Of a stretch of DNA of 64,000 bases, positions 23,246 through 63,369 are shown piece after piece. Source of the DNA: Peronospora farinosa (taxonomy: Eukaryota > Oomycota > Peronosporomycetes > Peronosporales > Peronosporaceae). Position numbers and translations under genes: made by a program. Each line of letters begins with the position of its first letter. Position 1 is the stretch's first letter. Location of the stretch: the NCBI GenBank assembly GCA_947646735.1, contig CANTFK010000094.1, positions 62,001 through 126,000 of the forward strand. Reading direction: 5' to 3'. Below the pieces are notes generated by a model. It ran no database searches and was not told the origin of the DNA. It was given only the letters and a program-made list of their open reading frames with translations.

Positions 23246-23339
23246 AGCGCTCTCAATTTACTCGTAAATATAACTCTGTTCTTTTGTTATGTTTTTTTCG
23301 CTTAAAAAGTGAATGTGTTCGCCTGTGTGCAGCCGCTAC

Positions 23340-29505: not shown

Positions 29506-29592
29506 TGGTTCTGGACCTCCGCCCTCCTGTCGTCTCGGTGGACGATAGGACCCCGAGTAGACGTGAGCCTGTTGTAGGCTAAAGTCCTCCTG

Positions 29593-30446: not shown

Positions 30447-30492
30447 AGCGGGAGGCGCGGTGGTCGCTGAACGGACCACGAAGTGCTACCAG

Positions 30493-33694: not shown

Positions 33695-33779
33695 ATTGGT
33701 AGCACTAGTAGTCCTTCACACGACCCGTCTCTCTGAGCGTGCGTGTGGTTAAGATATCCCTCAACGTGGATTGGGGTGA

Positions 33780-34880: not shown

Positions 34881-34989
34881 CAGTGTTATCGAACAAATGG
34901 GTAGCATAGTCCCTGAGGTACCAAAAGGTCGGACCTTGTTCATTTTGGCCTACAAAGACAACGAGACCTGTGGTCAGGCGGTAAGCTTA

Positions 34990-37900
34990 ACTTTAAGTTA
35001 AGCTGACCGACTTCCAACAATCCGTTGGAATCGGCAGTGGCTTCAATGGAGCACTGCTAGAAGGTGTTGGCTTAATGCGCTGACACTCTTTACAAGAGCA
35101 AATATAGTTGGCCACCCACCAGTATAGATGAGGCCACTAAAATTTCTCTGACACTCGTAAGAATGTCTTTTCACGACCCAGATGCCCACTAGATGGCGCA
35201 TCATGGCACTCGTGAAGTATCATCAGCTTGAGATCTGTGTCATGAGGGACATAGATTCTCAAGGGATCACAGGGTGACATCTAATGCCATAACAGGCCAT
35301 CACTGTAACTAAAGCGATTTAGTTTCGCTTTGAGGTGCGACGGAAGGGTAACCTTTCGTCCACCAAAATAATCCAGCAGCAGGCGACAATGTTCGTCTTG
35401 ACTGTAACACTCCTTTATATCGGAGGCCATTGAGCTCGTCACATGGTAGGCCTTCATGGCTGCCAATGTTGACGACTCAACTTGTGATTTCGCACGAGAC
35501 ACACTTTCCTGGTGCCTTGCCTCGAAGTCTGGTCTGCGCGATAACGCGTCAGCCAAGACGTTCGACTTACCCGGCTTATATTCAACTTTGAACTTAAATT
35601 CAAAGAAGAATGTTAGCCATCTCGCCATTCTCGACGAGAGGTGCGGTGAATTTATAGCGGTCCGCAGTGATGCGTGATCCGTATAAACCACAAAAGGTTC
35701 GGTGCCCAAGAGGTGAACTCGAAACTTGACAAGGGCATACTTAATCGAAAGTAGCTCCTTGTCATGCACAGGGTAATTCATCTCGGCAGCTTTTAAAATC
35801 CGAGACTGATACGATATGACACGGCCAATGCTGCTGTCATCCTTCTGTATGAGCGCGCTGCCGATTGCAAAATTGCTTGCATCGCAGACGACGCTAAAGG
35901 GCTTATCCGCGTCTGGCAATGCCAAGATCGGTGCCTCTACAAGATATTGCTTCACTGATGTAAACGCATCTTCTTGCTCCTTTGACCAAGTCCATTCTGT
36001 ATCGTTATTTCAAATCATCAGACAATGGCTTAGTCTGCTCCGCATAATTCTTGCTGTACTTATGCAAGTAATTAGCGATCTCAAGGAATGTGGCGCATAC
36101 CCTTCATGTGTCATTGGACTGGTCATTCCTTGATATTCTTTACCTTTTCTGGGTCTGCTTGTACACCATCTGCACCTACGATGCAGCTCAGTACAGGTAT
36201 CTCGGGGACCCCTATTACGCACTTTTGCAAGCTAACGTATAAGTGTGCGTCACCCAGAGTCTGCAACACAGCGTCTAAATGACGCTTGTGCGACTCTATT
36301 GCGCTCAGACCGTCCTCCACCCTACTATACACGAATACATCGTCAAAGGTTTTTATATGTATAAATATTATTTATATAAAAATAATGGGGCACGTAGGCA
36401 CGGTGCTGACGCATCACGTGATTCATTACTCGATTAAATGTTGTCGGAGCATTTTTCAACCCTTATGACATCACAAGCCACTCCCATAGCATACCGCTTG
36501 GGGTGCTTACTACCGTTTTGACTACATCAGTATATCTCATGAGAACTTGAAAGCAGCCATCCTTCACTTATTATAAGCATAAATCACGCGCCATCCCCCT
36601 GTTGCTTTACGCACACAGAAGGTCGGGCTGCAGTGAGGCGACTTGATCTCACGTACATGTCCCGCCTTGGCTCGCTTGTGGAAGAACTCATCGATATAAT
36701 CGACTTGTTCCTTTGGCAACTGCCATTGCCTGGTCACACAATACTTGGTGCCAGGATCCAGATCAATCTTGTGCCTGATGCCCCTATCGACCGGTAGGCG
36801 GCTCGGCACTACTGCTGGAAACACATCACGGTGTTTCCACAGAACATCATAGAACGGGCTGTCCTTCAAGGCATCCCAGCCTTGAGCAGCGAATCGTTTA
36901 TTTTTGTCGGTCTCCAAGACGCCCTCATCCATTGTGGACGGCGAGCAACAGTCCACCACGTTCTCTTCTAAAACTGGTGCGACTATCTCGTCGATCTTTC
37001 CTTCCTTTAGTTCGGACAGGAACAGATCCCACGTCATCTCCGAGAGATTTATTATCTCCTCGGCAGATGCCAAGACCAGTTGGAGCACCTCAACTGAGGA
37101 TGCCTCCGGCATTTGTCTTCGACGGCCTCGAGCAACTCGTTCGTAGGTCCGTCCTCTTGGACCGAGACTGATCCAAGGTTCACTCGTTTCGACGTTCCCT
37201 TGATCGTCTTAATACGTCTGATGCTCGTTGTTCGAGTCACCACGACCTTTGACCTGGAAGAAGGTGTAGTTGCTATATTAGACAACGCACTCCTTCCAAC
37301 CGCACCAGGCTCATGGCTCTGTGCCGGTCCTTGTGGCGCTTAACATCCTGTCAGCCCACCATAAACTGCCACAGGCTCTCGGATCTGTGCAGAACCATTT
37401 GACGAATGACTACCTGTCATCGCTGCACCAGTCCTTTTGACCTGGGTAGGAATATGTGTCACCTGGCTTTCTGTCAGGACACTTATAACTACCCCAAGCT
37501 CAACGAGCTGGGTAGTACCTGGTGCCGATTGACATACCGTCATCGCACCCTCGATTGTTTTGGACACAGCATCAGTCACATAAGCCTCTCGCAGGAGCAC
37601 ATCCTTACCATTGTCCTGCGTAGAGTCATCGACTGTGCGTGTACGCCAAGACATGATTGGTGTTTAGCCAACCAAGGCATGCCTAGGATGAGGTCATACG
37701 GACTCTCCATACCTAGCACTGTGAACTTCACTTTACAAGAAAAGTCACTGAAATTGAAGGCGAGTTCAACTTTTACCCCCTTCGAATTAACGAGCGCGCC
37801 GTTCGATAAACGAACGATCGCCTCTTCTCGCTTTCCATCAGGGCAAAGCGACTCATAACTCGCCGAACTCTTTTTCAAAGCCGAGAGTTTCACAAAATGT

Positions 37901-38048
37901 TGTGATGCACCCGAATCCACGAGAAGGGTTATCACTTGGTCATAGCCTCGTAACCAAGCACTATATACATACTGAGCAAGATGGTGCATTTGGCACCTTG
38001 TAGCACCAAGATCGAAGGAAAAGAGGCTACCCTCTTGTTTCTGGATCA
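34990..38048 (-). pseudogene. Inverted PR-RT-RNase H-integrase-finger block of Gypsy C
   Basis: On the minus strand from 38048 come, in order, a protease (LLVDSGASQHFVKLS, DLILGMPWL), RT parts (GWRVIYAYNK; FDDVFVYSR; VLSCIVGADGVQADPEKV), RNase H (VVCDASNFAIGSALIQ, HDKELLSIKYAL, VYTDHASLR, LADALSRRPD), and the integrase finger (ECHDAPSSGHLGREKTF ... CKECQRIKP). The block sits reversed between plus-strand gag and plus-strand integrase core, and ~55 residues of integrase are missing at the junction. Frame breaks and an AT-rich insertion (36355-36385) are present. Confidence 0.85.
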
Positions 38049-38950
38049 TGTGTATCGAATACACGGGATGTCTGATTTCATAGTATCGGATATGGATCCG
38101 CGTTTTACGTCAGGTTTCTAGCGTCATGTGTTTGAGTTGCTGAAAAGAAAACTTTTTATGTCAACAGCCGATCATCCCCAAACCGATGACCAAACAGAAC
38201 GGGCCAATCGAGTCGTGGCGGATGTATTACGTACAGTAGCGATTCCAAAGAAATGGAGCAAGCAATTGCCCTTCGTGGAGCTCGCTACTAATAACAGTGT
38301 TCACGTCAGTACGGGTGAAACACCGTTTTATATTAACAGACTGCGCCATCCTCGGACGCCAGTCTCGTTTGTGCGCAGCCCGAGTCTCAAAGGGGAGGGC
38401 CCCTCACTTCAATCGGTGCAAATGCCAAAGAGAATCAAAATTGCCCTGGTGACATTGCTAGTTTAGCAGTGGTCACGACACATATAGGTGTCAATGAGGA
38501 GGCACGGCAAGAAATGCCTGTGCTCCTTGACGACGACACTATCGTGTTCTCAATAGCGTCGACCCATGACCGACCCCTTGGAGGTGTCATAGGCGAGCTG
38601 GATGCTAACACGTGAGCGAATCTCAGCGCTTCATGGATGATCGATTAGCCATCACACGTAAAGTCCGTGACGCGATGGTAAGCGCATAGGTCAAGCAAAA
38701 ACAATATACGGACCAACATGGTCGCAAATACAATGAACACTTTAGTGTTGGGGACAAAGTGCTATTAAGTACTTCTACTCTACAAAAAATGCAATTGTTG
38801 TACTAGTACTAAGCTCTTGCCCCGATTCATTGGGCCATTTACGGTATTCGAGGAGGTTGAAGACCTAAATCGTAGGCTCACTCTCCCACCGTATATGAAG
38901 ACGCACCACGTTTTTTACGTGGGTCGTCTGAAACGGTATGTAGATCCATA
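38049..38950 (+). pseudogene. Gypsy C integrase core and C-terminus remnant
   Basis: The plus strand resumes inside the integrase: RIHGMSDFIVSDMDPRFTSGF, then TAG where Trp is expected, followed by STADHPQTDDQTERANRV (catalytic Glu region). After stops it reaches a C-terminal part resembling KLLPRFIGPFTVFEEV and HHVFYVGRLKRYV. It is clearly nonfunctional. Confidence 0.8.
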
Positions 38951-39283
38951 AGAGATCACATATCCACATCAGTTTAACGAGACCGATGGTGACGTCGACT
39001 GTGAGTCTAGCGTTGTTGCCGATCAGGCGACGGGGAAGCCGAACGACTTCCCGTATACGAGGGAGACGACAGAGGACTCCGCGCTTGACGCGGGTATTCC
39101 ATCACCAGTCGCTCATGCAGTCCAACGGACTTTCAGGCGGTCATTCCCGTTGAAGATCTTTCGTCGTCACATCTCGTAGATTCAAAGTCATTGACTCAAA
39201 AGATCAGACTCCTCTCTCTTCAGCGAAGCGATCTCCGCTTTCGACTGAATGGCAGCAGGATAGGTAGCCGCGAGTAGTTGTGC

Positions 39284-40459
39284 TTAATCGCTGCTCCTAT
39301 CGGGTGTCACCTGTGTTGGTGTATGCGGGTGGGAACACACGCTTCCTTGTTGGGAGGTTGTTGACCCACTGCCATGTGAAGCAAAGGTTTCATACTCTTG
39401 TCCAATGAGAAAGATATTTGAAGAGTTTCGACTCTTGAGAACCACTTGACGCGTTGCGCGTCGAAGTGATTGGGCTGGTGACTGCTTACAAGCAGAGGCA
39501 CCAGCTGCATTCGATCTATTAGGTCCTGATGGACTAGCAGGGGCAGTGTAGCGAGAAGGAGCAGGGGGTATGTTATCACCCAATATTTTTCGCACGCGTC
39601 ATCGCGAAGCTGGTTCTCTACGAACGCTGTTTCACTGCACCTGCATGTGGTTTAACACGGCGCAGGAACTCTTCTCAGTATCCGTCGGCTGATTCGTTGG
39701 AACTCAACACGACGGGGATAGGGAAAGCACGACCTCGTGCTTTGCCTTGCATTTTCCGTGATGGAAAGATGCTAAAAAGTTTATTAGCGTCAATAGTGAC
39801 ACGCTTTAGGAGCGTCGCGCTATTTTCACGTGAGTGTGATCCTCCGATGGCGGTGTCATTGGTGTCAAGACACCACTCACGTAGCCGCCCTCGCTACGGC
39901 GTGCTAGTGAGGCCGACTGTGTAGTCGATGGAGCTTTTTGATAACCCTCGCCTGAGTCTGACTCTCTATCATGGATTGTCAAGACGTCAGACGTAGGGTT
40001 GACAAAGGCTGATGATTTAGAATCGCCGACCTTCTGTTGAGTCGCGGCTGTTTCTTTCGAAGCAGCGCGCTCAGTTATGGTCGCTGTGCTCGTTGGCGCA
40101 GACGACGAGGCATGAACCTCGCTGTCAGGAAGCATGGAAGCTTTTTTGAAGGTTGGGTGTCTCAAATGATGGGGAAATATGTCCCATCAATACACTGTGC
40201 TCATCACCAATTTGATGTGATGGCAATGGCGTGCTCACATTGTAGTCAACAATGAGAGACAGGTCATCATCCGCACCATAGTAGTGTTCTCTGCTGACAA
40301 GTTGACATTAGATGTCGGCTTTGTCACAGACACACTTAGCGAAGGCTGCGAGTTATCGCGACGCGTACGCTTTGTGCTGGTTTGCATGGGTGACTTTTCA
40401 GGCGACCAATTAAACTTACCTCGTTTCAGTGGCATCTCCTTGCTTTCGATGTTTTGCAA
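39284..40459 (-). pseudogene. Antisense Ser/Thr/Pro-rich frame relics near the 3' end of Gypsy C
   Basis: Three minus-strand frames (40459-40235, 40165-39806, 39595-39284; 74, 119 and 103 codons) follow each other opposite to the element's sense strand. Their composition is low-complexity but protein-like (ASSSAPTSTATITERAASKE; PAPSRYTAPASPSGPNRS). The position matches the antisense frame of Gypsy A/B. Sequence similarity to that frame is not evident. Confidence 0.4.
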
Positions 40460-40491
40460 AAATGTAAAAATCGTCTTAAAGAGGGGGATGG

Positions 40492-41071
40492 TGTAACGGG
40501 CTAAAAGTTACACAGGTTCGTTAAGTATCAAGTACTTAACGGGGAGATCAAAAAGGGTACGTGGTACCTTAGACCTGCCACTTGGGTGCGGCACATCAAT
40601 GTGACCCACCCTCGTATCCATGGATGGATTCACATTCAACGGGGATGACGCCAGTTGGGACTAGGCGTCATGGTGACGCTTCAGATAGACGTCATCAGCG
40701 AGCTTTAATACATTTAAGCTCGCACGTAAGGAGACACTTTTAAAGAGACGCGTATCCAATCTTTGCATAATTAACCAATCAATAGTAGATTTATACATGA
40801 TTATTTCTATTAAATATAAGTCAGTCTTGAACCTACTAAACATCGCACACTATGCACGAGACGACTGCAAACAGCTTCCGTGACGCAGATAGGTGCTTGT
40901 ATTGAAGTTCATTGCGCGGTTCGCTCCAAAGCGATCGGCAACGGTTGGTACAGGGCTTTTTGGCGCCGACCAATACCGCGACCACCGCACGCTGAGGTAA
41001 GACGGTGAAACCGCTTCCTCACGTTGCTCGAAGGTGTGTGCTCGTAGCTTCTTTTGAAGTGCCTATTTTCA
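40492..41071 (+). repeat. 3' LTR of Gypsy C (580 bp)
   Basis: Begins TGTAACGGG after a purine tract and ends TTTTCA. It is colinear with 33126-33694 apart from small indels and a ~20-bp insertion around 40675. Confidence 0.85.
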
Positions 41072-41169: not shown

Positions 41170-41508
41170 AGAACAACATGGCAGTTGCGCGTCGCCAAAA
41201 TCGTCATCACTAGAACATTTGTCGGTATCCGGTATGCGATCTCTAGGCTCTCATCTACAAGATCTTCATCTACATTCATACCGCCTCGAGGACCGCAAGG
41301 TTATTTGACCCTTCTTTAGCAGCCTCTTGCTGTGTCATCAGCGCAAACGGAGGGCGACGCAGACACCGACGTTTGTTGAACCACCGCCGCAGCTGTGTCA
41401 TGTTCACATCTACCCTTTGTTTCTTCACGTCTCGTAATGGTGAAGTATTCAACTGTACCAAGTAGTCCTCCATTTCTTCTCGCGATGGTTTGTACTTCTG
41501 TTGGAACT
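41170..41508 (-). pseudogene. 3' part of a duplicated homeobox gene, right-hand remnant
   Basis: Minus-strand sequence matches 15100-15470 of the intact gene, including FQQKYKPSREEMEDYLVQL and LRRWFNKRRCLRRP, with scattered substitutions. It stops at 41508, where the left LTR of Gypsy B begins. The missing upstream part continues at 54075. Confidence 0.88.
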
Positions 41509-41967
41509 GTAACGGGGTGAGCTCGTTACATAATATTGACACTTATATGAAGTGTCAATAAAATATTATTATAACTAATAATATTTTGACAATATTACCT
41601 TTTCTTATAATATTGTTCCTAGATCTCCTTGAAGTTGGAGATGCCCTCTTATTGGTTGATATGGGCCATCATATCAACCAACGCGCTGACCAATGACCGA
41701 TGGACGCGCGCAATGAGTGGAGGGCAAGTTGTCGACATACATAGTTGTAGTTTAATATAGTTAACATAGGTTATAACAGATTAGTTTTATTAAGATAGTT
41801 AACTATATTAAATACAGTTTTCTTTTCCTCTACTTCTAAGCGTTTGTTTAGAAGTAAAGCTTCCTCTGCCTCTTGTGTAAGAGAGGTAATTGAGGCACCT
41901 GCTTTCACTGTAATCAGTGAAAGTAGACTATACTGTAATCAGTATAGTCGGAGGGTGCCCCGTTACA
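41509..41967 (+). repeat. 5' LTR of Gypsy B (459 bp) with multiple hairpins
   Basis: TGTAACGG...CCGTTACA. Perfect inverted repeats include 41652-41663/41670-41681 (12 bp), 41832-41839/41848-41855 (8 bp), 41902-41910/41915-41923 (9 bp) and 41927-41935/41940-41948 (9 bp). The last two share the identical loop TAAT. Confidence 0.92.
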
Positions 41968-41969
41968 CC

Positions 41970-41982
41970 TGGTAGCACTTCG
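41970..41982 (+). other. Primer-binding site of Gypsy B
   Basis: TGGTAGCACTTCG starts two bases after the LTR. The same first ten bases (TGGTAGCACT) follow the LTR of the unrelated Gypsy C, supporting use of one tRNA 3' end. The tRNA was not identified. Confidence 0.65.
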
Positions 41983-42014
41983 TGGTCCGTTCAGCGACCA
42001 CCGCCCCACCCGCT

Positions 42015-43207
42015 ATGGAATCAGCGGGTGATGAACGTCATCACGCAACGCGTGATGATTTCCGCCATTTGAGTGACCTCGAATGGAATGCGGTTCAGCG
42101 TATGGCTGAAACCATCGGCAACCCTGCCGTTGGTGCCATATTGCTCTCTCTTAGCGGAGACGACCAACATGCAACCATCGCCAAGTTCATACAACATGAA
42201 CTTGACGAAGTTGTAAAGAGACTCACCTTGCTAGAGGAGCAAGGTTCTCAACAGGTTGAACTGTTGAGAGAACAAGGCGCTCAACAAGCTGACTTGTTGA
42301 TGCAGCAGGGTGCTCAACAGTCTGAACTGTTGGACAACAGCAGGCTAGTGCTGTTGCTTCCGGGTCGGCGTATGCACGTCGACCCGAGTCCTTGAAGATT
42401 GATGTCTTTAAGTACAAGGAAGTCGAAAGCGACTCCTTGTTGAGATGGTTCGTCGAGCTCGACGATGCCATTGAGGCTCGTCGCATCGATGACGATGCGA
42501 TGAAGGTCAAGTTCGCCATGTCGAACTTGGCAGGACGTGCCAAAGCTTGGGCCTTAGGGCTCAAACTGCACGACCCGTACGTTTTCCCAACGTATGACGT
42601 CTTCAAGGCGCGGCTCAAACACACGTTTGAACCGCCTCGCGCCGAATTCAGGGCTCGGGCTGAGCTCCTGGATTTGAAACAGGGTAAGCGTGATATACAC
42701 GCTTACGCCCAACACGTACGATACCTCGTTAGCTGTATCGTACTGAACCCAATCGATGAACACACGCAGGTTACTGTGTTCATCAAGGGTCTGGCAGATG
42801 GTCCTGTCAAGACCCACCTGTTCCGCTTGGAGCTAGAATCGCTGGATCAAGCGATCTCTGCAGCGGAACAGGAGGACTTTAGCCTGCAACAGGCTCACGT
42901 CCGTTCGGGGTCCTATCGTCCACCGAGACGACAGGAGGGCGGAGGTCCAGAACCAATGGACCTCTCCTATGTAGAGAGCGAGCAACCTCGCTCTCCAGGG
43001 TACAAGCGATTGCAAAAGTGCAATCGCTGTCAGAAGTTGGGCCACTACGCTTATGAGTACGCCCAGTGTCTCGTTACACTGGGAGTGACGATCGATCGTC
43101 TGCCAAGAAGGTCCAGAGACGTGGGGCCTACGTTGTTGCGATTTCGCAGCAACGTGGTGGACCATCAAAAAACGGTCGGGGTCAGTAGGGGCGGAGCGCC
43201 CTACTGA
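42015..43207 (+). pseudogene. Gypsy B Gag
   Basis: ATG 42015. The N-part ends at 42395. The capsid-like part lies in the frame displaced by -1, open from about 42326, and runs to 43207. The two frames overlap by ~70 nt, and the same displacement exists in copy A. The zinc knuckle begins CNRCQKLGHYAYE but its last Cys is lost through a 10-bp deletion, after which the frame is wrong. Confidence 0.75.
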
Positions 43208-43259
43208 TCCAGCAACGTCAAGAGAGTTCGCGGGACTCCTGACGAAGGTTGCTCCCAAC

Positions 43260-46200
43260 ACACAGTCACTGTGTGTTGCCGCTCCCAGTGATGAGGTATC
43301 TCTTATCACCTTGAAGATCGAAGTGACAAAGAACATGTCACTTCGCGCCCTAGTTGATTGTGGGGCTTCGAACAACTTTGTTCGACGCCAATCGCTAGAT
43401 GATCGTAGGCTCAAATATGTTGAGCGCGAGACCCCTCCAACGAGGATGACGGTGCACCTTGCAACTGGCGCATCCGTAACAGTAAAGAAACGTGTAGTGG
43501 GAATTCACTACACGCTTAAAGGCAAAAAGTACGATGATGATTGCATCGTACTTGATCTGGATGACAAATTTGATGTCATCCTAGGATTACCATGGCTCAG
43601 AAGGTACGAGCCATGGGTCAGCTGGCAGCATCGAACCGTGAAGATGCCTGCCGCTTGTTCATCAGATGGCCATCTGATGAATGTCTTGGAGCGTTCACAA
43701 GCGTGTGAATGTACTACGAGTGAGTGTGATGGCCTCACTTGTGGTTCGGTCATTAGTACGACTGCACAAGAACTCAGCGTGACAGACAGTCACGCTGTGG
43801 AGCAAGCTGCCGGCGGCTGTGCACAAGCACAGGCAGCGCCGAAGGTCCACCACTCGAGCAAGTCGAGTGGACCGGGACATGAATGCTCGCCTAGAGGGCA
43901 GCATTCACCGAAGAGTAAACCGGTTTCCCAGAAGCGGCAACACGGTAATCCTAGATCAACTGGAGAGTTGATCGTAGAGGATCTCGCTGTGGTTGCGCCA
44001 CCACAGCTAGAGGAAGTCGATGGAACAGGTTCCATCGAGCCTGCGGGGATAAGTCCCCAGGAAATAATCACTGAGGGAATAAATCCCCAGGAAGTAATTG
44101 AGACGTTGAACGTCTTGGTTAATGACGGATCAAACGTAGGCGCTTATACGCTTAATCTGATCGCGCCTCCGAAGTTAACTTCGGAGATAACTCAGTTGCC
44201 TACGCTAGAACCTAAAAGGTTCTTGCGTGATCTGCGTAGTGGCAAAGTCAAGCAGATCTGTGTGCTCGTCGCAGAGGACGAGTACATGACTGACATTCGG
44301 TCAGCAACAGTTTTTGACGAGAACGAACGGGTTCTCAGCAGCTCATCAATGGACGAGAATGTCCTTGATGAGAAGACTCGGATTGAGCGATATACATCGC
44401 AATCCTGGGAGTCGCTGAAGTCAAATCCTTTGTATAAGGATTTGGTCGAATTCAAGGATGTATTCCCTGAATCCGTTCCGTGCGAGTTGCCTAAGGATAA
44501 AGGTACTCGACACGAGATCGACCTTGTTCCTGGCACAAAATATTGTGTCATGAAGCAGTGGCCACTGCCTCGGGAACAGGTCGAGGCGATCGACAAGTTC
44601 TTTGCCGATCGCCTAGCAGCGGGCCATGTGAGGGAATCAACTTCACCTCACAGCTCTCCGACCTTCTGTGTGCGCAAGGCCACAGGAGGGTGGCGGATAG
44701 TGCACGCGTTCAATAAGTTGAACGCTGCAACGATACCGGCGCAAACGCCGATACCGAGAAAGGACGTAATCATAGATGGTATGTCTAAGAGTACCATCTT
44801 TTCGTCCATGGATCTGATGGATGGTTTCTATCAGATCCTAATGCGTGAACGGGACATCCCATACACAGCAGTGAGCACTCCCAGTGGTATGCTCTGGGAA
44901 TGGTTTGTGATGCCGCAAGGGCTTAGTAATGCACCAGCCACATTCAATAGATGTGTTTCACATCTATTGAGACCGGTGCGCGAATTCGCACCGAGTTACT
45001 TCGATGATGTGTTCGTCCATAGTCGAGCTATGGACGGGAAAACAGACGTGGAAGTCCATAGACTCCACGTCCGTCAGGTTCTTACACTTATGCGAGAGCA
45101 TAAGTTGTACGCCAACCTCAAGAAGTGTATATTCGCAGCAAGCGAAATACCACTTCTTGGGTGCATCGTCGGAAAGAACGGCGTACGCCCTGATCCAGAA
45201 AAGATCAAGGCGATCACCGACTGGCCAGTGCCAGTCGATGTCAAGGGACTAAGGAAGTTCCTTGGTCTAGCGGCGTACTTGCACAAGTACTCGCGCAATT
45301 ACGCCGAAATGACAGTACATCTTTCTTGTTTACTCAAGAAAAATGTAAAGTGGAACTGGAACGCTGACTGTCAGCGTTCCTTTGAGCGTATCAAGCAAAG
45401 CTTGATGCAATCACCAGTGTTGGTGATTGCCGATCAAGACAGACCATTTCATGTGGTCTGTGACGCCAGTGATTTTGCAATCGGCTGCGCATTGATGCAA
45501 TATGATACAGACGGCGCCGAGCGTGTCGTCTGTTATCAATCGCGTCAGCTGCAACCGGCTGAGCGCAATTACCCGGTGCATGACAAGGAACTCCTTGCCA
45601 TGAAGTATGCACTGGCTAAGTTTCGCGTCTATCTCTTAGGAGATAGACCGTTCATTGTATATACAGACCATGCGTCACTACGCACGGCTGTAAATAGTCC
45701 ACACCTCTCGCAACGAATGGCGAGATGGTTGTCGTTCTTCGCGGAGTACAACTTCTCCGTGGAGTATAAGCCGGGACGACTTAACGTCGTCGCCGATGCT
45801 CTTTCACGTCGGCCTGACCTAGAGCCGACTGTGCAATCCGACAGTGATGTGAGCACCACTGTCGCCACGCTGAGTACCAGCGTCTTGTCGTCGAGCTTAC
45901 TCGACGACATTAGAAGGGCATGCGCACAAGATAATGATCTTGTACGCCTGATGGAGTATCTCAAGGACCCATCCACGCAAGCTAAGAAGCGCTTGCCTGC
46001 CATGTATCGATCTTCTCTCGATCGATACACCCAGCGGAACGGCTTACTGTACTATATAGCCGTCAACAACGACACGCCTCGTGTCGTTGTACCGCCACAA
46101 CATGATCTCAGGTTACGGATCATGTTTGAATGTCACGATGCACCAATAAGTGGGCATCGTGGCCGTGAGAAGACCTACCTCACGGTCAGTCGCGACTTTT

Positions 46201-46772
46201 ACTGGCCACGCCAGTATAAGTTCGTGCGCAAGTACGTGCGTGCTTGCGAGGTGTGTCAACGAGTGAAGCCTAGTCCTTCACCCCGTGCACCATTGCAGCC
46301 TCTACCTGTTCCGGCAGAGTGCTGGGAGTCCGTATCAATGGACTTCGTCTTTGGGTTTCCCAAAGACGCTCACGGGAATAATGGTATTCTCGTGTTTGTA
46401 GACAGGTTCAGCAAGATGGTACATCTTGTTGCTGTACCTGAGTCGATCACAGCAGAGGGCTGTGCTCGAGTGTTTATCGATACAATCTTTCGATTGCACG
46501 GTTTACCCCGTGAACTTGTGTCCGATAGGGACCCCCGGTTCACGGCTGAGTTTTGGCGTTCCTTGTTCCAAACACTTGGAACACGGCTCACAATGTCTAC
46601 TTCTGACCATCCAGAAACTGATGGTCAGACTGAACGCGCCAATCGCGTCCTCGAAGAGATTCTTCGAGGGTACGTCCACTCGTTTACGAGTTGGAGTGAG
46701 TTCTTGTCGATGGTCGAATTCGCCATCAACAACTCCGTGCTGCGTCTACGACGCATACACCGTTCTACGTGA
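43260..46772 (+). pseudogene. Gypsy B pol: protease, RT, RNase H, integrase core
   Basis: A long frame (>1,150 codons) covers the protease (ALVDCGASNNFV; DVILGLPWL), RT (LMDGFYQI, MPQGLSNAPATF, YFDDVFVHS), RNase H (DASDFAIGCALMQ, HDKELLAMKYAL, YTDHASLR, VADALSRR), and the integrase finger and D,D,E core (VSDRDPRFTAEFW, TDGQTERANRV). An indel near 46740 ends the frame early relative to copy A. The DNA is dense in short inverted repeats. Confidence 0.85.
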
Positions 46773-47878
46773 ATGGCCTTCGCCATCCACGTGTCCCCAC
46801 CTTAGTAGAAGGTGACTCTAATTCAAGGGGGGAGGAACTCGCTCGAGCGAGAACCAATCTGGCTCTTGCTCATCACGCGACGACGTTATGGTCGACGCGA
46901 AAGTAACCGAAGTCGTACCATTCGACTTCGGTGAAGAGGAAGAAAGTAAGAGCGATGACGCTCTTACTGACAACGATGTTGAAGATATCAGCATCGTTCG
47001 AGGTATCACAAGTGAGAACAGTAATGTTCTCGCTGAATTAGTAACCGATATCTCTGCAGTGCATTCACAATGCACTGCACCCAAAAGCAACGAGTCAGCT
47101 GAGGATTTCCTGCTGACTCGTGAAGCGGTAGTCCGTTTCGTGCAAGATTCCATCGCGGAAGCGGTGGATACACAAAAACGTAACGCAGACAATAATGGAA
47201 GGGCAAATGCTCAAACATTTATTGAAGGTGATTTAGTTTTACTGTTAACAGTTAACCTACCTAAACATGTAGTGACTAACGTGGGCAGCAATAAATTGTT
47301 GCCCAAGTACATCGGCCCGTTTCGTGTATTGCGCCGCCTAGGCAACGCATACACGATCGAGTTGCCACGCAGGATACGTACGCATCCTACGTTTTACGTG
47401 GGACGTCTTTGTCCGTACATTCAACACGCGGCTTCTTCGAACGACGAAGATAGCCATTACTCTCAAGAATCCCCTTCAGATTCTTGTTGTCACGAACCAG
47501 ATTCGATACCTGGTCGTGTAGAGATGAGATCTTCCCATGATATTGGACGATCTCCTGACGAGCTGTCGCCAGCTCGTTACTTAGAGAATGAAGCCGCCGT
47601 TCATTCTCCAATAGTGCGACAGCATTGTTTGCCCGAGACTTCTCATGGTCAAACCCAAGCTGTCGCACAATGTCCTCTAAGCGGCGACGCTTATCCCGTT
47701 CGTGATCAACATCACAACGGAGCTCACGAGTTACACGGGCAAACCCGTCTAACTCAGCAGCCAAGTCCAAAGAAAGAATCGGACAGGGTTTTCCCTCCAC
47801 CACCGCATCCGCTGGTGGACTCCCATGGTGGGAAGCGCTTCCTCGTGGAACGCTTACTAAAGCACCGCGAGGTGAAGG

Positions 47879-48103
47879 TAAAGATCTTGGATAGGTTGGA
47901 AGTGCTTGATTGTTTTAATGCAAAACGCAAAGTGATTCATTTGGTCCTTAGTTCGCTTACGCTACTCTAAGCCTAATGTTTACCCTCTGGATACACTCTA
48001 CTTGATCCAAACTTCAACTGCATCCAATCACCGAACTTCAACTGCATCCAATCACTGGAATGACGATAGTATCGCAGCTGGTCGAGGAGTCATATTGACA
48101 ACA
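47879..48103 (-). repeat. 3' LTR of Copia (225 bp)
   Basis: Holds two copies of a ~24-bp unit (AACTTCAACTGCATCCAATC) and the last codons of the gag-pol frame, which ends at 48052 inside the LTR. Confidence 0.92.
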
Positions 48104-51100
48104 CTCCCACTCGACTCGACAGCCGATGATGCCATAATGCCAAGTTTGCTTCGGAGCGTACTGAACTGTGGGCCGGGAATTGGCTTCGTCATGAGGTCGG
48201 CCAGCATGTCAAGTGTTGACACATACTGTAGCACAACTTGGCCATCTTCCACCTTCTCGCGTACGAAGTGGTATCGTATGTCGATGTGCTTGGTGCGCTT
48301 GTGAAACTCGGGATTCTTGGCCAACGCTATCGAACCTTGATTGTCCTCGTAGATCTTGACCGCTTCGTCCTTTGCCATTTCTCCAAGCTCGCATAGGAAG
48401 GCCTTCAACCAAACTGCCTCTTGAGTAGCTTCCGATAGTGCCATGTACTCAGCTTCCGTTGAAGACAGCGCCACCGTTTTTTGTTTCTTGCTTCTCCAAC
48501 TGATACACCCGCCGTTCATCATGAACGCGTAGCCACTTGTACTTCGGCGCGACTCAGTGTCGCCTGCCCAGTCTGCATCCGAATAGCCTGTAAGAGAATC
48601 GCCATCCGCCGTGAACTCGATGCCGTAGGTCTTCGTGCCTTGAATGTACCGAAATATCCGCTTTAGCGCTTGCCAATGTGTAGGACATGGATCTGCTGCA
48701 AATTGGCTGAGGACTCCCACTGCAGCGGCAAGGTCGGGACGCGTGCCAACCATAAGGTACATGAGGCAACCAACAGCACTTCGGTAGGGCACATTTGCCA
48801 TTGTGTCGCTGTGATTGCACCCATCCTCGCACATGGACTTCGCCAATTTGAGTCCTGGATCTTGTGGTGTCTTGACTGGATTGCTGTTGTCCATGCCAAA
48901 CTTAGTCAAAACGTCCTTGGCAAACTTGGTCTGACGCATCGATACCTTTCCACGTTCTTGATCGATTTCCATGCCAAGAAAGAAGTTGAGCTTACCCAAG
49001 TTGGTCATCTCAAATCGATCACTCAAGGCGTCCTTTACTGTATTGAGCATCTTGTCACTGCTGCTTGCAAGTACCAAGTCGTCCACATAGAGTGCGACGA
49101 AGATTATGGCTTCACCGTCGCGTTTCGTGTAGATGCAGTGGTCCGATTCACATTTCTTCAAACCAAGCTTCAGCATGAACTCGTCAATGGTCTTGTTCCA
49201 CATGCGCGGCGATTGCTTCAGTCCGTACAGCGATCGATTGAGCTTGCACACGAGGTTGGTATTGCTGTCCTTGACGTAACCTTCAGGCTGAATCATGTAA
49301 ATGTCTTCGTCCAGCTCACCATTGAGAAAAGCAGTCTTGACGTCCATCTGGTGCACGGTAAGATCATACTTCGCCGCAAGACTTAGCACGATTCGGATTG
49401 ACGTGAACTTTGCCACAGGCGCGAATGTTTCTTCATAGTCAATACCGAACTTTTGCGAGAATCCTTTTGCAACCAGGCGTGCCTTGAACCGCTCAATTTG
49501 TCCATCCTTGTTTTCTTTGACACGAAATACCCATCTGCAGCCGATTGCTTTGCGACCTTTGGGAAGCTGAACAAGATCCCATGTCTTGTTCTTGAGCAGC
49601 GAGTTGATTTCGGAGTCGCACGCTTCTTCCCATTTCACAGAGTTGATGGATTCCATCGCCGACCTGTGCGTGGTCGGCATTTCTCCCACTGAATCCACAA
49701 CGAATGCCGCCTCAAAATCTCCTTCAGCAATTGCCGACATGTTTTGTCGCTTCGAACTCGGAATTTCCGTTGCTTGATCAAGAGATTGTGTTCTTGGATG
49801 TCTTTTGTCGCCAGGCGCGAAGTCTGTCGTTTGGACGTTCTCAACGTCTTCATCTTCATTCATAGCGTCATCCGTATCTTCATGGTCCGTACTCAATTCC
49901 TCGTTGAGATCAGTGACCGCTTGTTCTTGGACAGATCTACCACCGTCGAAGACGTCTTCCATAAACTGCGCATCACGACTTACGGTGACGCGCCCACTTG
50001 ATATGTCCTCAAAGCGGTAGGACTTGAGATGCTCCGCGTAGCCCAAAAAACGGCATAGTGAAGCCTTGGCATCTAATTTCGAGCGTTTCTCGTGCGGAAT
50101 ATGGACGTACGCATGACATCCAAATACCTTGAGGTTTGTCAGTACAGGCTTCTTCTTCGTCCAGACCTCATAAGGTGACTTTTCTTCACTTATGGCTCTT
50201 GTTGGGCATCGGTTTCGCAGAAACATTGCCGTCGTCACAGCTTCGCCCCAATATTTCTTGGGTAATCCAGCGTGCTCCAGCATGCAACGAGCACATTCCA
50301 CGAGCGTCCGGTTCATTCGCTCCGCGACCCCATTCAGCTGTGGTGTGTACGGTGGCGTGTACTTTCGAACAATACCGTTCTTGGTACAAAACTTCGCCAT
50401 GTCTCCAGCCGTGTACTCGCCGCCGTTGTCACAAATTAGCGTCTTGACGCGATTGCCAGTTTGAGTCTCGGCAAGATCAACAAACTCAGCAAACTTGGTG
50501 GTCACTTCGGACTTCTTCTTCATAAGGTACACCACGCAGTATCTTGACTTGTCGTCAATGAACGTGACGAAGTATCGTTTACCACTAAAAGTTAATCTTG
50601 ACATAGGTCCACAGACGTCGCTGTGAATGACATCCAAAATCTTGGTTGAGCGTTTTGGTGCTGTCGATTGAAAACGCACGCGTGTTTGCTTACCAAGCGA
50701 ACACCCATCACAAACATCCCAGTCTTCGACAGACGTTATGTTGATTCCAACACCAAGTTTCTTCTTCACGATGGTATCAAGTCCATCGTGGCCCAAATGA
50801 CCAAGTCGAAGGTGCCAGAGGTACGACTTGGTGTCCCCATAACATCCCGACGACTTGGCTGCATTGGCTTCATCTCCCAGAAGTGGCGTCATTTGAAGCT
50901 TGAAGAGACCTTTACCCTCACGAGCTCCGATCTTCCACTTTATGCTATTCGCTTCGGCAAAACAGCCATCCGTGTCGAATGTTACAGGACCGACGTCCTT
51001 AGTAAATCGACCGACCGAGAAAAGGTTGCGGGATAGCTTGGGAATGTGCCACACCTTCGTCAGTACACCCTTCTTGATACCCTTCGGGGTCTTCATTGAC

Positions 51101-52131
51101 ATCATTATGTCACCACATCCAATTGCTTGCACGACACCATCGTCTGCAAGGTGTACGTCAATTGGAGAGAAGAGCTTGTAGTTTGTCATGAACTTCTTGG
51201 AGCACGTCATGTGCTGCGTCGCTCCTGAGTCGACCAGCCACACTTCATCCGCGTTGTCGGTGCTTTTACTCCAGCTAACCGAAAATAGATAGTCGCCGTC
51301 ATTGTCGTTCTGAGCGACGTTGGCGCGATGCGATCGGTATTGTTCCGTGTTGTCTTGGCCTCGCGAAGGACACTCCGCGATCCAATGACCCATTTTGCCG
51401 CAATTATGGCACGCCCCAGTCTTCTTCACCGGTCGCCCTTTGTTGCGCTTGTTGTCTCTTGTCATAAACGCTTGGCCATGGGTAGCTCCGTCGACGCTAC
51501 CACTTTGTTCCTTGCGTTTCATGTTCTCATGAAGAAGCCTAGACGACACTAGCTCCCACGTCAACGTATCAGCTCTCGATTCCAACGCAGTGATGAGGAA
51601 CTGGTACGATTCGCTGAGACTTCCAAGCAGCGTGATTACCAGGTCGTCAGCACTGACCGGAGCGCCGACTGCTTCGAGCTGCTCTGCCAGAGTCTTTACC
51701 TTATTGATGTGTTCCATCACATCGTCCCCTTCTTCCATCGTGACTGTGAAGAGACGACGACGAAGGAAGAGCTTATTCGCCAAGCTCTTCTTCTCGAAGT
51801 GGTCTTCAAGTCTTGACCATGCATTATGCGCATCACTTGCAGAGCGGACGAGCGGCAGTTGCGAATCTTCCATAGCCAAGCAGATAGCTGCCATGGCCTT
51901 GCGAGACTTCCTCTTGAACGACGCTTGGTCCATCGTGTTCGCCAAGTCACCAATCTTCACTTCCCCAGAGACGACCTCCCACAGGTCACGCTCCTCGAGC
52001 ACCATCTGCATCTTGAACTTCCAGGCGTGGAAGTTGGTTCCATCAAACTTGTTGATGCGATTCAGCGACGAGTGCTCCATAGCGAACGCGTAGTCGGCAG
52101 CAGAGGTTGAGGTGGCGGGGCTTGGGCTCAT
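48052..52131 (-). CDS. Copia Gag-Pol polyprotein
   Basis: 1,359 codons, intact. Gag (residues ~1-220; FDGTNFHAWKFKMQMVLEER) leads to the zinc knuckle CHNCGKMGHWIAEC. The protease is VWLVDSGATQHMTC, and the pre-integrase motif is HLRLGHLG. The integrase core is HSDVCGPMS, FIDDKSRYCVVYLM, ICDNGGEYT and GVAERMNRTLVE (D,D,E). RT has WVFRVKENKDG, RFKARLVAKGFSQ and LYVDDLVLA. RNase H has SDADWAGD, SSTEAEYMAL and EDNQGSIAL. The order PR-IN-RT-RH defines Ty1/Copia. All catalytic residues looked for are present. The start codon lies five bases inside the 5' LTR boundary, within the presumed primer-binding site. Confidence 0.95.
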   Translation of the reverse strand: MSPSPATSTSAADYAFAMEHSSLNRINKFDGTNFHAWKFKMQMVLEERDLWEVVSGEVKIGDLANTMDQASFKRKSRKAMAAICLAMEDSQLPLVRSASDAHNAWSRLEDHFEKKSLANKLFLRRRLFTVTMEEGDDVMEHINKVKTLAEQLEAVGAPVSADDLVITLLGSLSESYQFLITALESRADTLTWELVSSRLLHENMKRKEQSGSVDGATHGQAFMTRDNKRNKGRPVKKTGACHNCGKMGHWIAECPSRGQDNTEQYRSHRANVAQNDNDGDYLFSVSWSKSTDNADEVWLVDSGATQHMTCSKKFMTNYKLFSPIDVHLADDGVVQAIGCGDIMMSMKTPKGIKKGVLTKVWHIPKLSRNLFSVGRFTKDVGPVTFDTDGCFAEANSIKWKIGAREGKGLFKLQMTPLLGDEANAAKSSGCYGDTKSYLWHLRLGHLGHDGLDTIVKKKLGVGINITSVEDWDVCDGCSLGKQTRVRFQSTAPKRSTKILDVIHSDVCGPMSRLTFSGKRYFVTFIDDKSRYCVVYLMKKKSEVTTKFAEFVDLAETQTGNRVKTLICDNGGEYTAGDMAKFCTKNGIVRKYTPPYTPQLNGVAERMNRTLVECARCMLEHAGLPKKYWGEAVTTAMFLRNRCPTRAISEEKSPYEVWTKKKPVLTNLKVFGCHAYVHIPHEKRSKLDAKASLCRFLGYAEHLKSYRFEDISSGRVTVSRDAQFMEDVFDGGRSVQEQAVTDLNEELSTDHEDTDDAMNEDEDVENVQTTDFAPGDKRHPRTQSLDQATEIPSSKRQNMSAIAEGDFEAAFVVDSVGEMPTTHRSAMESINSVKWEEACDSEINSLLKNKTWDLVQLPKGRKAIGCRWVFRVKENKDGQIERFKARLVAKGFSQKFGIDYEETFAPVAKFTSIRIVLSLAAKYDLTVHQMDVKTAFLNGELDEDIYMIQPEGYVKDSNTNLVCKLNRSLYGLKQSPRMWNKTIDEFMLKLGLKKCESDHCIYTKRDGEAIIFVALYVDDLVLASSSDKMLNTVKDALSDRFEMTNLGKLNFFLGMEIDQERGKVSMRQTKFAKDVLTKFGMDNSNPVKTPQDPGLKLAKSMCEDGCNHSDTMANVPYRSAVGCLMYLMVGTRPDLAAAVGVLSQFAADPCPTHWQALKRIFRYIQGTKTYGIEFTADGDSLTGYSDADWAGDTESRRSTSGYAFMMNGGCISWRSKKQKTVALSSTEAEYMALSEATQEAVWLKAFLCELGEMAKDEAVKIYEDNQGSIALAKNPEFHKRTKHIDIRYHFVREKVEDGQVVLQYVSTLDMLADLMTKPIPGPQFSTLRSKLGIMASSAVESSGSVVNMTPRPAAILSSFQ

Positions 52132-52135
52132 AACC
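52124..52135 (-). other. Copia primer-binding site complementary to a tRNA-Met anticodon arm
   Basis: Immediately after the 5' LTR the minus strand reads GGTTATGAGCCC. Its complement, GGGCTCATAACC, has the tRNA-Met anticodon loop CTCATAA flanked by stem bases. This suggests half-tRNA priming, as known for Drosophila copia and Ty5. The ATG of gag-pol is inside this site. Confidence 0.6.
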
Positions 52136-52360
52136 TATAGATCTTGGATAGGTTGGAAGTGCTTGATTGTTTTAATGCAAAACGCAAAGTGATTCATTTG
52201 GTCCTTAGTTCGCTTACGCTACTCTAAGCCTAATGTTTACCCTCTGGATACACTCTACTTGATCCAAACTTCAACTGCATCCAATCACCGAACTTCAACT
52301 GCATCCAATCACTGGAATGACGATAGTATCGCAGCTGGTCGAGGAGTCATATTGACAACA
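52136..52360 (-). repeat. 5' LTR of Copia (225 bp)
   Basis: Same sequence as 47879-48103 except the third base (T for A on the plus strand). Confidence 0.92.
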
Positions 52361-53671
52361 GAAGGGACGTCGGACGAGTTATCTCGTCCGGTGGCGTGGC
52401 TATTCGCCTTCGGCGGATAGCTGGGAACCTCGGGCCCAACTGATGGCCGACGTTCCCGGCCTTGTCGAACAGTACGACAAGGGGCACCCGATGGTGAAGG
52501 GCCATCGGAAAACGAGCGCCCAGCGCGCTCGTAAAGGGATTGCAAAGTAGCAATCCCTTCACGCATTTCAGAAGAGATGCGAGCCCTCCACCAGGGCTCA
52601 GTAAGGAGGTACGCCTCCTTAGGCGCTCTTGACGAGGTGCTCAGGCACCCCGGGCATGGGTCGCCCCAAGAGAGGCATAACAGGCCTGCCTCTCTAAATA
52701 ACCGGTGCAAACGATAGCATGCACAGGACGTACTTCGTTTCTCAAACTTATTGCGGCTAGCATAAAGTCTTTGAAACCAAGCCTCTTTCCCAACGTTTAA
52801 AACGTTGGTGATAAACGCGTTCCAAGATTGGAGGAACGCGTCGGCCTCACGCTTCTTGTGTGGGCCATACCATCGATGTTCAAGGGACACATCGATGTAA
52901 TAATCGTTCTCAGTGCGAAAGTTCTTCGCACTGGCGTCAAGGCCATGAAGCTTTGACACATCAAACAACGGTATGGGTAAGCGTTCGCTGGTCTTTCCAG
53001 ACCAACGATCAAGCAGATGCTTAGGTAGCATCCATGGCTTGCGATCAGGAGCAAGACGCAATACGTTGCGATCTAAAGCCTCCTGCGTGGTGTCAACAGA
53101 AGTACCGACACCACGAGCATTAGTGTCAACAGAAGTACAGACACTATGATTATTGATGTCAGTAGAAGCACTGACATCACCCTTACGGTCCCCACCCGAG
53201 TCACTATCCTTCGACTCGTTTGGCGAGACGTCTGATTCATCAGACGACCCGAACATTTCACGGTACATTGACTCACTCAATGTACCACGATCCCTCTTCG
53301 TAGCATTAGACGACGAGGTATCACCCCGGGGAGAGCCCGGGAGTGGAATAGGTGACTTTGAGCCGGATGCGTGATCCGACTCACCAGAGTAGTCAACGAC
53401 TAACTCTGGGTCAACATCTTCACGTGGCGAAGCGCTACGTGAACCTGCAACAGGCGTTGCAGGCTGATGTTGACTTCCAGCAGACACATTAGTGTCTGCT
53501 GGCTGAGGCTGTGAAGCCTCAGTAGCGGCTGCACACAGGCGTGCAGCCGAGCTCTTGGCTGCCTTAGCAGCGACGCGCATTGACTTTGTCATAGCGTAAT
53601 TGTTGAATGAAAGAAAATTCAACAAGTTCTCCTTTTCCATAGTCACTAAACAGTCACTAATGTGACTGTTG

Positions 53672-53690
53672 GTTGAGGGGGGGGGGGTGA
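53672..53690 (+). other. Polypurine tract of Gypsy B
   Basis: A G-run of about twelve (GAGGGGGGGGGGGG then TGA) directly abuts the right LTR, the normal position of the plus-strand primer. Confidence 0.75.
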
Positions 53691-54074
53691 TGTAACGGGT
53701 GAGCTCGTTACATAATATTGACACTTATATGAAGTGTCAATAAAAATATTATTATTTATTGGTTGATATGGGCCATCATATCAACCAACGCGCTGACCAA
53801 TGACCGATGGACGCGCGCAATGAGTGGAGGGCAAGTTGTCAACATACATAGTTGTAGTTTAATATAGTTAACATAGGTTATAACAGATTAGTTTTATTAA
53901 GATAGTTAACTATATTAAATACAGTTTTCTTTTCCTCTACTTCTAAGCGTTTGTTTAGAAGTAAAGCTTCCTCTGCCTCTTGTGTAAGAGAGGTAATTGA
54001 GGCACCTGCTTTCACTGTAATCAGTGAAAGTAGACTATACTGTAATCAGTATAGTCGGAGGGTGCCCCGTTACA
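53691..54074 (+). repeat. 3' LTR of Gypsy B (384 bp, with internal deletion)
   Basis: Identical in layout to the left LTR but lacks ~75 bp corresponding to 41572-41650. The TAAT-loop hairpin pair is retained (54009-54055). Confidence 0.92.
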
Positions 54075-54279: not shown

Positions 54280-54296
54280 ATGTAACTTACACCTAC

Positions 54297-63339: not shown

Positions 63340-63369
63340 TGATGCTTACTCGCTTCTTAAGATAAGTGT

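What the first reader, a model, noticed from the sequence alone, without database searches (positions are those of the whole stretch)
41509..47878. Gypsy A/B DNA is a near-continuous string of short perfect inverted repeats
Across LTR, gag, pol and antisense frame, perfect inverted repeats with 7-12-bp arms and 0-13-nt loops recur every few tens of bases. Hand-checked in 43319-44038: 43319-43328/43336-43345, 43491-43499/43506-43514, 43527-43536/43544-43553, 43590-43598/43608-43616, 43658-43669/43670-43681, 43775-43783/43789-43797, 43850-43857/43863-43870, 43954-43961/43966-43973, 43986-43993/44000-44007, 44017-44026/44029-44038. That is ten with arms of 8 bp or more in 720 bp. A random sequence would give roughly 0.2 per kb (14 loop sizes x 4^-8 per position). 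Further examples: a 20-bp palindrome at 44167-44186; 44584-44592/44606-44614; 44944-44955/44959-44970; 46003-46012/46020-46029; 46066-46076/46080-46090. Host genes here (for example 13345-15468) and the Copia do not show this by eye, while the protein motifs are ordinary Gypsy motifs, so the pattern sits in codon choice. Possible causes: selection for a hairpin-rich genomic RNA (packaging, RT pausing, small-RNA interplay), or repeated quasipalindrome-templated correction during reverse transcription.
Basis: seen in the sequence. Interest (0 to 1): 0.87.

Follow-up and report, generated by a model that had tools for sequence, protein, structure and literature searches.

The report
Retrotransposon that writes itself into hairpins
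A family of Gypsy retrotransposons in an oomycete genome carries about ten short, perfectly matched hairpins per kilobase, hidden in its choice of codons, and the likely cause is that template switching during its own DNA synthesis keeps rewriting one arm of each hairpin from the other.

Summary
Confirmed: all 15 listed inverted repeats are perfect. Pol holds 39 with arms of 8 or more, against a mean of 1.1 (maximum 5) in 50 synonymous shuffles. All 30 family loci examined have 7.1-13.3 per kb. Four host ORFs and 29 other RT loci have 0-0.9, and a Copia nested in element A about 1.2. Three other Gypsy elements show it weakly.

Selection for folded genomic RNA fits badly: both strands fold equally well, and standing mismatches are not G.U-rich (8, against 14 A.C). 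The protein pays no clear cost. Stems resist change in inherited variants; private changes hit them about as often as other sites. In 7 of 72 hairpins some copies carry the loop exactly inverted, a published footprint of template switching. Inherited G-to-A changes nearly miss stems (3 of 418 G sites; 72 of 1170 elsewhere), which suggests that hairpins fold in minus-strand cDNA.

Best explanation: arm homogenisation by template switching during cDNA synthesis, filtered by protein selection. Correction of stems was not seen directly (stem-completing private changes 31, expected 32), and most inverted loops are in single copies, so selection for cDNA hairpins remains a serious rival.

The parts
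41508..41967 (+). 5' LTR of Gypsy element A (TGTAAC...GTTACA), 460 bp, hairpin-rich; target-site duplication GGAAC at 41503-41507
   Evidence: sequence read; hairpins
42392..43207 (+). gag ORF, 10 hairpins with arm >=8
   Evidence: Pfam Retrotrans_gag 5e-13; 10 against codon-shuffle mean 0.3
43311..46772 (+). pol ORF (protease, RT, RNase H, integrase), 39 hairpins with arm >=8
   Evidence: Pfam; 39 against codon-shuffle mean 1.1, maximum 5
46773..47878 (+). integrase tail region with SH3 (Tf2-1-like) domain, 7 hairpins, the lowest density in the element (6.3 per kb)
47879..52360 (-). nested Copia element (225 identical bases at both ends); few hairpins (5 in its ORF), used as an internal control
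52361..53690 (+). 3' part of element A before the 3' LTR; G-rich (polypurine-tract-like) run near 53676-53688; overlaps an antisense ORF 52309-53724 without Pfam match
   Evidence: 26 hairpins in 52361-54074; sequence read
53691..54074 (+). 3' LTR of element A, 384 bp, 76 nt shorter than the 5' LTR; target-site duplication GGAAC at 54075-54079
23339..30955 (-). Gypsy element B, a second copy of the same family with largely the same hairpins; the repeat match stops at 23339, so it appears to lack a 3' LTR
33126..41047 (-). Gypsy element C, about 70% identical to A in the alignable parts, weak hairpin excess (15 against 1.7)
42038..42058 (.). hairpin with inverted loop in one copy (AAC / GTT)
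   Evidence: L019
43850..43870 (.). hairpin with inverted loop in one copy (ATAAG / CTTAT; copy A itself has a third loop)
   Evidence: L028
44017..44038 (.). hairpin with two inverted-loop allele pairs (AG / CT and AA / TT)
   Evidence: CT in L014 and L027; TT in L021
45358..45380 (.). hairpin with inverted loop in one copy (TTG / CAA)
   Evidence: L008
45407..45430 (.). hairpin with inverted loop in one copy (GTAT / ATAC) and a compensatory A-T / G-C difference at 45413/45424
   Evidence: L012
46066..46090 (.). hairpin with inverted loop in three copies lying within about 22 kb on one contig (CCT / AGG)
   Evidence: L023, L025, L026
46945..46968 (.). hairpin with inverted loop in one copy (ATGA / TCAT)

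Best explanation
Element A is a Ty3/Gypsy retrotransposon whose DNA is packed with short perfect inverted repeats, and the likely cause is template switching during its cDNA synthesis, which would copy one arm of an imperfect repeat onto the other and sometimes flip the loop. Shown: the repeats are real, Watson-Crick-perfect, strand-symmetric, present in all 30 loci examined and hidden in synonymous choice; loops occur in both orientations; stems resist change in variants that are shared between copies. Inferred: RT pauses at a fold in single-stranded cDNA, the nascent strand uses the opposite arm (intrastrand) or the complementary strand (interstrand) as template, then returns. Purifying selection on Gag and Pol keeps only changes that the protein tolerates. 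Once the element is integrated the process stops and stems decay like other sequence.
For: Perfection and strand symmetry: folding energy per 120 nt of 41508-47878 is 13.7 kcal/mol below shuffles on both strands, sense minus antisense -0.03 +- 0.59. Standing single mismatches inside stems: A.C 14, G.U 8, other 12, against 73 perfect hairpins. Loop inversion: in 7 of 72 hairpins one copy's loop is the exact reverse complement of another's (4, 6 in the scan, 3 in both). Among inversions with three or more differing bases that scan found 4 at arms >=7 and 3 at all other centres. Published work gives arm homogenisation plus spacer inversion as the footprint of template switching (PMC8604942, passages seen; PMC8794818, abstract and discussion read). 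Maintenance in shared variants: at pol third positions private changes are equal (stem 0.244, other 0.243), shared ones differ (stem 9/312, other 67/740, p=2e-4). Stem-breaking changes relative to the null go from 228/254 (private) to 53/67 (shared by >=2) to 21/33 (shared by >=3). Single-stranded minus-strand cDNA: inherited G>A in stems 3/418, loops 13/132, elsewhere 59/1038 (p=3e-7, stems against the rest), private G>A flat by site class. Turnover: related Gypsies have mostly other hairpins. Internal control: the nested Copia shares the locus but has 5 hairpins in its 4.1-kb ORF.
Against: Stem-completing private changes are not in excess: 31 against 32. Inherited completing changes are only slightly in excess: 12 against 9.8. 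Hairpins completed by two or more private changes: 4 against 1.05, P=0.02; of the six hairpins with a median of two mismatches, only two were completed by changes in a single arm, as one switch would do. Compensatory double changes are few: 9 double-changed cells, 6 of them restoring a pair, against 541 single-changed cells. The explanation does not by itself give the preferred arm length of 8-10. The inverted loops could have arisen after integration: six of the eight inverted alleles are in single copies (five, one), and the three AGG copies lie within about 22 kb on one contig. The Copia too is slightly above its shuffles. No DNA from other species could be examined.
Confidence: 0.5

Rival explanations
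1. Selection for hairpins in the single-stranded cDNA. Stems would protect the minus strand from cytosine deamination or nucleases, or compact it, and elements with broken stems would leave fewer copies.
For: Inherited G>A (C>U on the minus strand) is 3/418 in stems, 59/1038 elsewhere, 13/132 in loops; 1/418 against 36/1170 for alleles in >=3 copies. Depletion of stem-breaking variants grows with allele frequency, as purifying selection would do. At third codon positions the other change classes together are also fewer in stems: 15 over 460 stem sites against 75 over 1145 sites outside stems and loops (my sums). Minus-strand pairing probability is lower at inherited G>A sites (0.514 against 0.638, p=0.003).
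Against: Over all sites other stem-breaking classes are not depleted (C>T 19/416 against 56/1113; G>T/C 11/418 against 22/1170), which selection on pairing should also remove. Plus-strand pairing also differs at inherited G>A sites (p=0.011), and private G>A sites show a slight minus-strand difference too (p=0.042). Loop inversions need a separate explanation.
Confidence: 0.25
2. Selection for a highly folded genomic RNA (packaging, RT pausing, escape from small RNAs), comparable to genome-scale ordered RNA structure in viruses.
For: Folding energy is far below shuffles. Inherited stem transitions lean to G.U over A.C, 28 against 14, with 75 and 77 elsewhere, p=0.055, or p=0.026 with loops added to the comparison. 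A few hairpins share their centre with related Gypsies more often than the null.
Against: Sense is no more stable than antisense. Standing mismatches are not G.U-rich. T>C, which makes A.C, is not depleted in stems (9/402 against 28/1009) and A>G, which makes G.U, is if anything depleted (7/402 against 32/1124), so the wobble reading of the transition bias fails. Most hairpins are not at the same place in relatives.
Confidence: 0.1
3. A host-genome process (gene conversion or replication template switching) acts on integrated copies.
For: Template switching with loop inversion is known in chromosomal genes of yeast (PMC8604942). Six of the eight inverted loop alleles are in single copies.
Against: Private changes, presumably mostly post-integration, hit stems about as often as other sites. 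Four host ORFs and 29 other RT loci in the same genome are not hairpin-rich and the nested Copia is only slightly above shuffles.
Confidence: 0.08
4. Chance or base composition.
For: None found.
Against: Codon and dinucleotide shuffles give about 1/30 or less of the observed number in gag, pol, leader and 3' part.
Confidence: 0.01

Closest known systems
Coding palindromes in mitochondrial genes of Nematomorpha (PMC6649704; abstract and discussion read)
   Same: Perfect inverted repeats embedded in protein-coding genes, no excess of imperfect long ones, protein conserved, positions turn over, phase bias; template switching named as one possible mechanism
   Different: There mitochondrial genes with long arms (up to 284 bp); here a nuclear LTR retrotransposon with about ten short ones (arms mostly 8-12 bp) per kb over coding and non-coding parts
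Template-switch homogenisation and spacer inversion of short inverted repeats in S. cerevisiae genes (PMC8604942; passages seen)
   Same: Perfect short inverted repeats in coding DNA, spacers exactly inverted between close relatives, recurrent flips
   Different: There ten spacer inversions were found in coding sequences of yeast strains; here 7 of 72 hairpins in one 6.4-kb piece of one element family, in an element that replicates by reverse transcription
Template switching that creates and maintains RNA hairpins (PMC8794818; abstract and discussion read)
   Same: Compensatory multi-base changes and loop inversions as footprints
   Different: RNA genes under structural selection; here no sense-strand preference
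Small inversions in hairpin loops of chloroplast DNA (search listing only; details recalled)
   Same: Loop flips between short perfect arms among close relatives
   Different: Isolated hairpins, not a hairpin-saturated element
Genome-scale ordered RNA structure of RNA viruses (recalled; search listing)
   Same: Excess folding energy along the genome, set in synonymous choice
   Different: Here strand-symmetric and Watson-Crick, not tuned to one RNA strand

Membership tests
Ty3/Gypsy LTR retrotransposon with chromodomain | gag, protease, RT, RNase H, integrase in that order; chromodomain | tested here: met
   Pfam hits in A; the chromodomain hit is in copy B only
Ty3/Gypsy LTR retrotransposon with chromodomain | LTRs with TG...CA ends and a target-site duplication | tested here: met
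   TGTAAC...GTTACA and GGAAC on both sides
Template-switch-driven inverted repeats | perfect arms with few imperfect ones | tested here: met
   73 perfect, 34 with one internal mismatch
Template-switch-driven inverted repeats | exact spacer inversion between relatives | tested here: met
   7 of 72 hairpins
Template-switch-driven inverted repeats | excess of changes that complete an arm | tested here: inconclusive
   completions by two or more private changes 4 against 1.05, P=0.02; all private changes 31 against 32; inherited 12 against 9.8
Template-switch-driven inverted repeats | the switching polymerase is the element's RT | not testable with these tools
   only indirect: stems resist change in shared but not private variants
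Coding palindromes of the Nematomorpha kind | long perfect arms (up to 284 bp) | tested here: not met
   arms of 8-12, two of 15
Selected genomic RNA structure | sense strand folds better than antisense; G.U accepted in stems | tested here: not met
Selected genomic RNA structure | hairpins at conserved positions in relatives | tested here: not met
   same centre 1 of 15 (L061), 3 of 17 (L060), 0 of 7 (C), nulls 0.06-0.08, so a few are shared above the null but most are not; two of the shared ones lie on Pol stretches conserved (my reading)
Known Rfam RNA family | match at gathering score | tested here: not met
   0 matches in 41400-54300

The most novel reading that the evidence does not exclude
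A retrotransposon family whose replication cycle rewrites its own genome into hairpins: fold-back template switching by its reverse transcriptase is frequent enough to drive protein-permitted stretches towards perfect short stems, and the resulting hairpins shield the minus-strand cDNA from deamination, so that a mutational drive and a benefit reinforce each other.
Probability: 0.3. Interest if true: 0.88.

Novelty: new variant of a known kind. Interest (0 to 1): 0.74.

Why it matters
It would be a natural case where a mutational mechanism, not selection for function, imposes secondary structure along protein-coding DNA of a whole element. It would give the open question of how perfect stems arise and persist a system with dozens of close copies. 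It also warns that strong folding energy and synonymous conservation in an RNA-based element need not mean a functional RNA structure: the strand-symmetry and G.U tests used here can tell the two apart. I saw no earlier report of a hairpin-saturated LTR retrotransposon in the results listed by the searches, which cover open-licence papers only and show capped lists.

Tried and rejected
Sense-RNA structure selection: disfavoured. The transition bias in inherited stem changes (28 to G.U, 14 to A.C) first looked like RNA selection; split by class it is nearly all G>A, and T>C and A>G go the wrong way for a wobble reading. Single hypermutation event as source of the G>A pattern: rejected, the alleles are spread over many different sets of copies. 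Deaminase motif: inherited G>A has 3' A at 0.41 against 0.29 for all G, not followed up. Stems limited only by the protein: not supported, terminal mismatches are synonymously resolvable in 20 of 49 against 21.1 expected. Threshold on stability: weak negative correlation of arm length with GC, rho -0.17, p=0.054. Intrastrand directional bias: the four pair orientations in stems are 214, 214, 247 and 220, no clear bias. External DNA relatives: none in viral contigs or genome contigs. Rfam and tRNA: nothing. Host identity: the closest Pol relative, 97% identical, is named Peronospora effusa; a host ORF found only four oomycete hits at 37-53% identity, so the species is not settled. Caveats on rows: L018 is copy B and L001 is copy A, so neither was entered a second time; the copy alignment holds A, B and 28 loci (30 rows) over 41508-47878 only. 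B was aligned over 3833 bases only. Columns with too few copies were dropped (thresholds 8, 10 or 15 copies). Nulls treat sites as independent although copies share history. The first alignments failed or missed reversed loci and were replaced; the first position comparison (part) returned nothing and was replaced.
Full report
What was checked. A scan for arms >=8 and loops <=15 gives 10-31 per 2-kb bin inside the two Gypsy copies A and B, and 0-6 per bin, mostly 0 or 1, elsewhere. Element A begins with a 460-bp LTR at 41508, is interrupted by a Copia at 47879-52360, and resumes to 54074 with a 384-bp LTR; a 5-bp duplication GGAAC flanks it. Pfam shows Gag, protease, RT, RNase H, integrase and an SH3 Tf2-like domain in A, and a chromodomain in copy B.

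Significance. In pol 39 hairpins stand against a mean of 1.1 and a maximum of 5 in 50 synonymous shuffles; gag 10 against 0.3. Non-coding parts are denser: LTR and leader 15.8 per kb, 3' part 15.2, gag 12.3, pol 11.3, integrase tail 6.3. Four host ORFs have 0-2 each. Twenty-nine other RT loci (L031-L059; LINE-like by the length of their RT match, not otherwise classified) have 0-0.80 per kb; all 30 loci of this family have 7.1-13.3 per kb. These 30 are the best of a capped list of 49 matches. For loops of 3-9 nt the arm-length counts run 15, 26, 25, 15, 5 and 4 for arms of 7 to 12 and none beyond, where single-base shuffles give 1.2, 0.5, 0.1 and then zero. The Copia nested inside A has a small excess only (5 against 1.0).

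It lies in codon choice. Pol residues wholly in stems are as similar to relatives (0.656) as those outside (0.655), with relatives among themselves at 0.645 and 0.648; codons with two stem bases are lower (0.579 against 0.628 among relatives, 44 columns). Third-with-third codon pairing, which leaves least synonymous freedom, is rare: 8 of 49. Stems do not simply run until the protein stops them: 20 of 49 terminal mismatches could be resolved synonymously, 21.1 expected.

It does not look like RNA structure. Local folding is 13.7 kcal/mol per 120 nt below shuffles on both strands of 41508-47878, sense minus antisense -0.03 +- 0.59. A sense RNA under selection should use G.U pairs. Standing one-mismatch stems instead show A.C 14, G.U 8, other 12, and the first pair outside the stems of A shows G.U 20 and A.C 20, of B 12 and 17. 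Related Gypsies L060, L061 and C have their own hairpins (8 in 3.5 kb, 18 in 6 kb, 15 in 7.9 kb), mostly at other places: same centre 3 of 17, 1 of 15, 0 of 7, with nulls of 0.06-0.08. These relatives are saturated at third positions (33-34% identity), and stem positions of A still pair somewhat more there than slid controls (0.41, 0.36 and 0.33 against 0.26, 0.25 and 0.24), which conserved first and second codon positions may explain (inference).

How it evolves. Twenty-nine other copies (B and 28 loci) of 41508-47878 were aligned to A. At pol third positions, changes private to one copy are equally common in stems (0.244 per site) and elsewhere (0.243); changes shared by two or more copies are not: stems 9/312, elsewhere 67/740, loops 21/101. 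Over all sites, stem-breaking changes are 228 against 254 expected when private, 53 against 67 when shared, 21 against 33 when in three or more copies. So stems appear to be kept while the element propagates and to decay afterwards.

Loop inversion. In 7 of the 72 arm >=8 hairpins of this piece one copy carries the exact reverse complement of another copy's loop: 42038, 43850, 44017 (two allele pairs), 45358, 45407, 46066 and 46945. The scan found 6 such centres with arms >=7 and 87 without such arms, among roughly 12,700 possible centres (my count); for three or more differing bases it found 4 and 3. It took the smallest window per centre, so 46945 is not among its 6; that case rests. Six of the eight inverted alleles are in single copies, and the three AGG copies lie within about 22 kb on one contig, so the timing relative to integration is open. 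Such inversions, with arm homogenisation, are the published footprint of template switching (PMC8604942, passages; PMC8794818). One compensatory difference (45413/45424) is A-T in copy A and G-C in nearly all others.

Minus-strand signal. Inherited G>A changes are found at 3 of 418 G sites in stems, 13 of 132 in loops and 59 of 1038 elsewhere (p=3e-7 for stems against the rest). No other class shows this over all sites, and private G>A is flat: 73/418, 28/132, 177/1038. With alleles in five or more copies it is 0/418 against 21/1170. G>A on the sense strand is C>U on the minus-strand cDNA, so the simplest reading, not tested, is deamination of single-stranded cDNA from which folded stems are protected; the hairpins would then really form in cDNA. 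Not explained by that reading: A>G is also lower in stems for alleles in three or more copies (2/402 against 24/1124, p=0.025), and at third codon positions the other classes together are lower in stems too (15 over 460 sites against 75 over 1145, my sums).

Against the explanation. Among 1098 private changes 31 complete a stem of 8 or more, 32 expected. Inherited completing changes are 12 against 9.8. Hairpins completed by two or more private changes are 4 against 1.05 (P=0.02), and several such cases alter both arms, which one switch does not do. So homogenisation itself has not been caught in the act; its rate must be inferred from the standing excess. Nulls ignore shared ancestry.

Verdict. 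The shuffles rule out chance, and strand symmetry argues strongly against sense-RNA selection. Between template switching in cDNA synthesis and selection for cDNA hairpins I favour the first, at 0.5 against 0.25, because it accounts together for perfection, strand symmetry, turnover, loop flips and the near-absence from the nested Copia. In the results listed by the literature searches (open-licence papers only) I saw no hairpin-saturated retrotransposon; the nearest published case I saw is mitochondrial (PMC6649704).

Noticed in passing
41508-41967 and 53691-54074: The two LTRs of element A differ by 76 nt in length: the 3' LTR lacks a stretch holding the hairpins at about 41560-41616, although a 300-base stretch of the two is reported as identical (rounded). 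LTRs of one insertion should match at birth.
   Followed up: partly
41275-41507 and 54075-54235: Element A is inserted in an inverted, 94-97% identical copy of part of the gene at 13345-15468.
   Followed up: partly
47879-52360: A Copia with a 1359-aa open frame and 225 identical bases at both ends sits inside the Gypsy, so it is probably a recent nested insertion.
   Followed up: partly
1427-4945: A 1172-aa ORF is made of a tandem array with spacings of 183 and 171 nt, with long open frames on the opposite strand too.
   Followed up: no
1-585: Tandem array with a 117-nt unit at the window edge.
   Followed up: no
11715-11752: An isolated perfect hairpin with a 15-bp arm beside the small ORF 11091-11696.
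   Followed up: no
21976-22945 and 61166-63828: A dispersed repeat present in several direct and inverted copies, roughly 77-92% alike.
   Followed up: no
52309-53724: A 471-aa antisense open frame covers the hairpin-rich 3' part of element A; no Pfam match.
   Followed up: partly
41508-47878 across family copies: Shared alleles fall in many different, often conflicting sets of copies, which suggests recombination between copies or recurrent mutation.
   Followed up: partly
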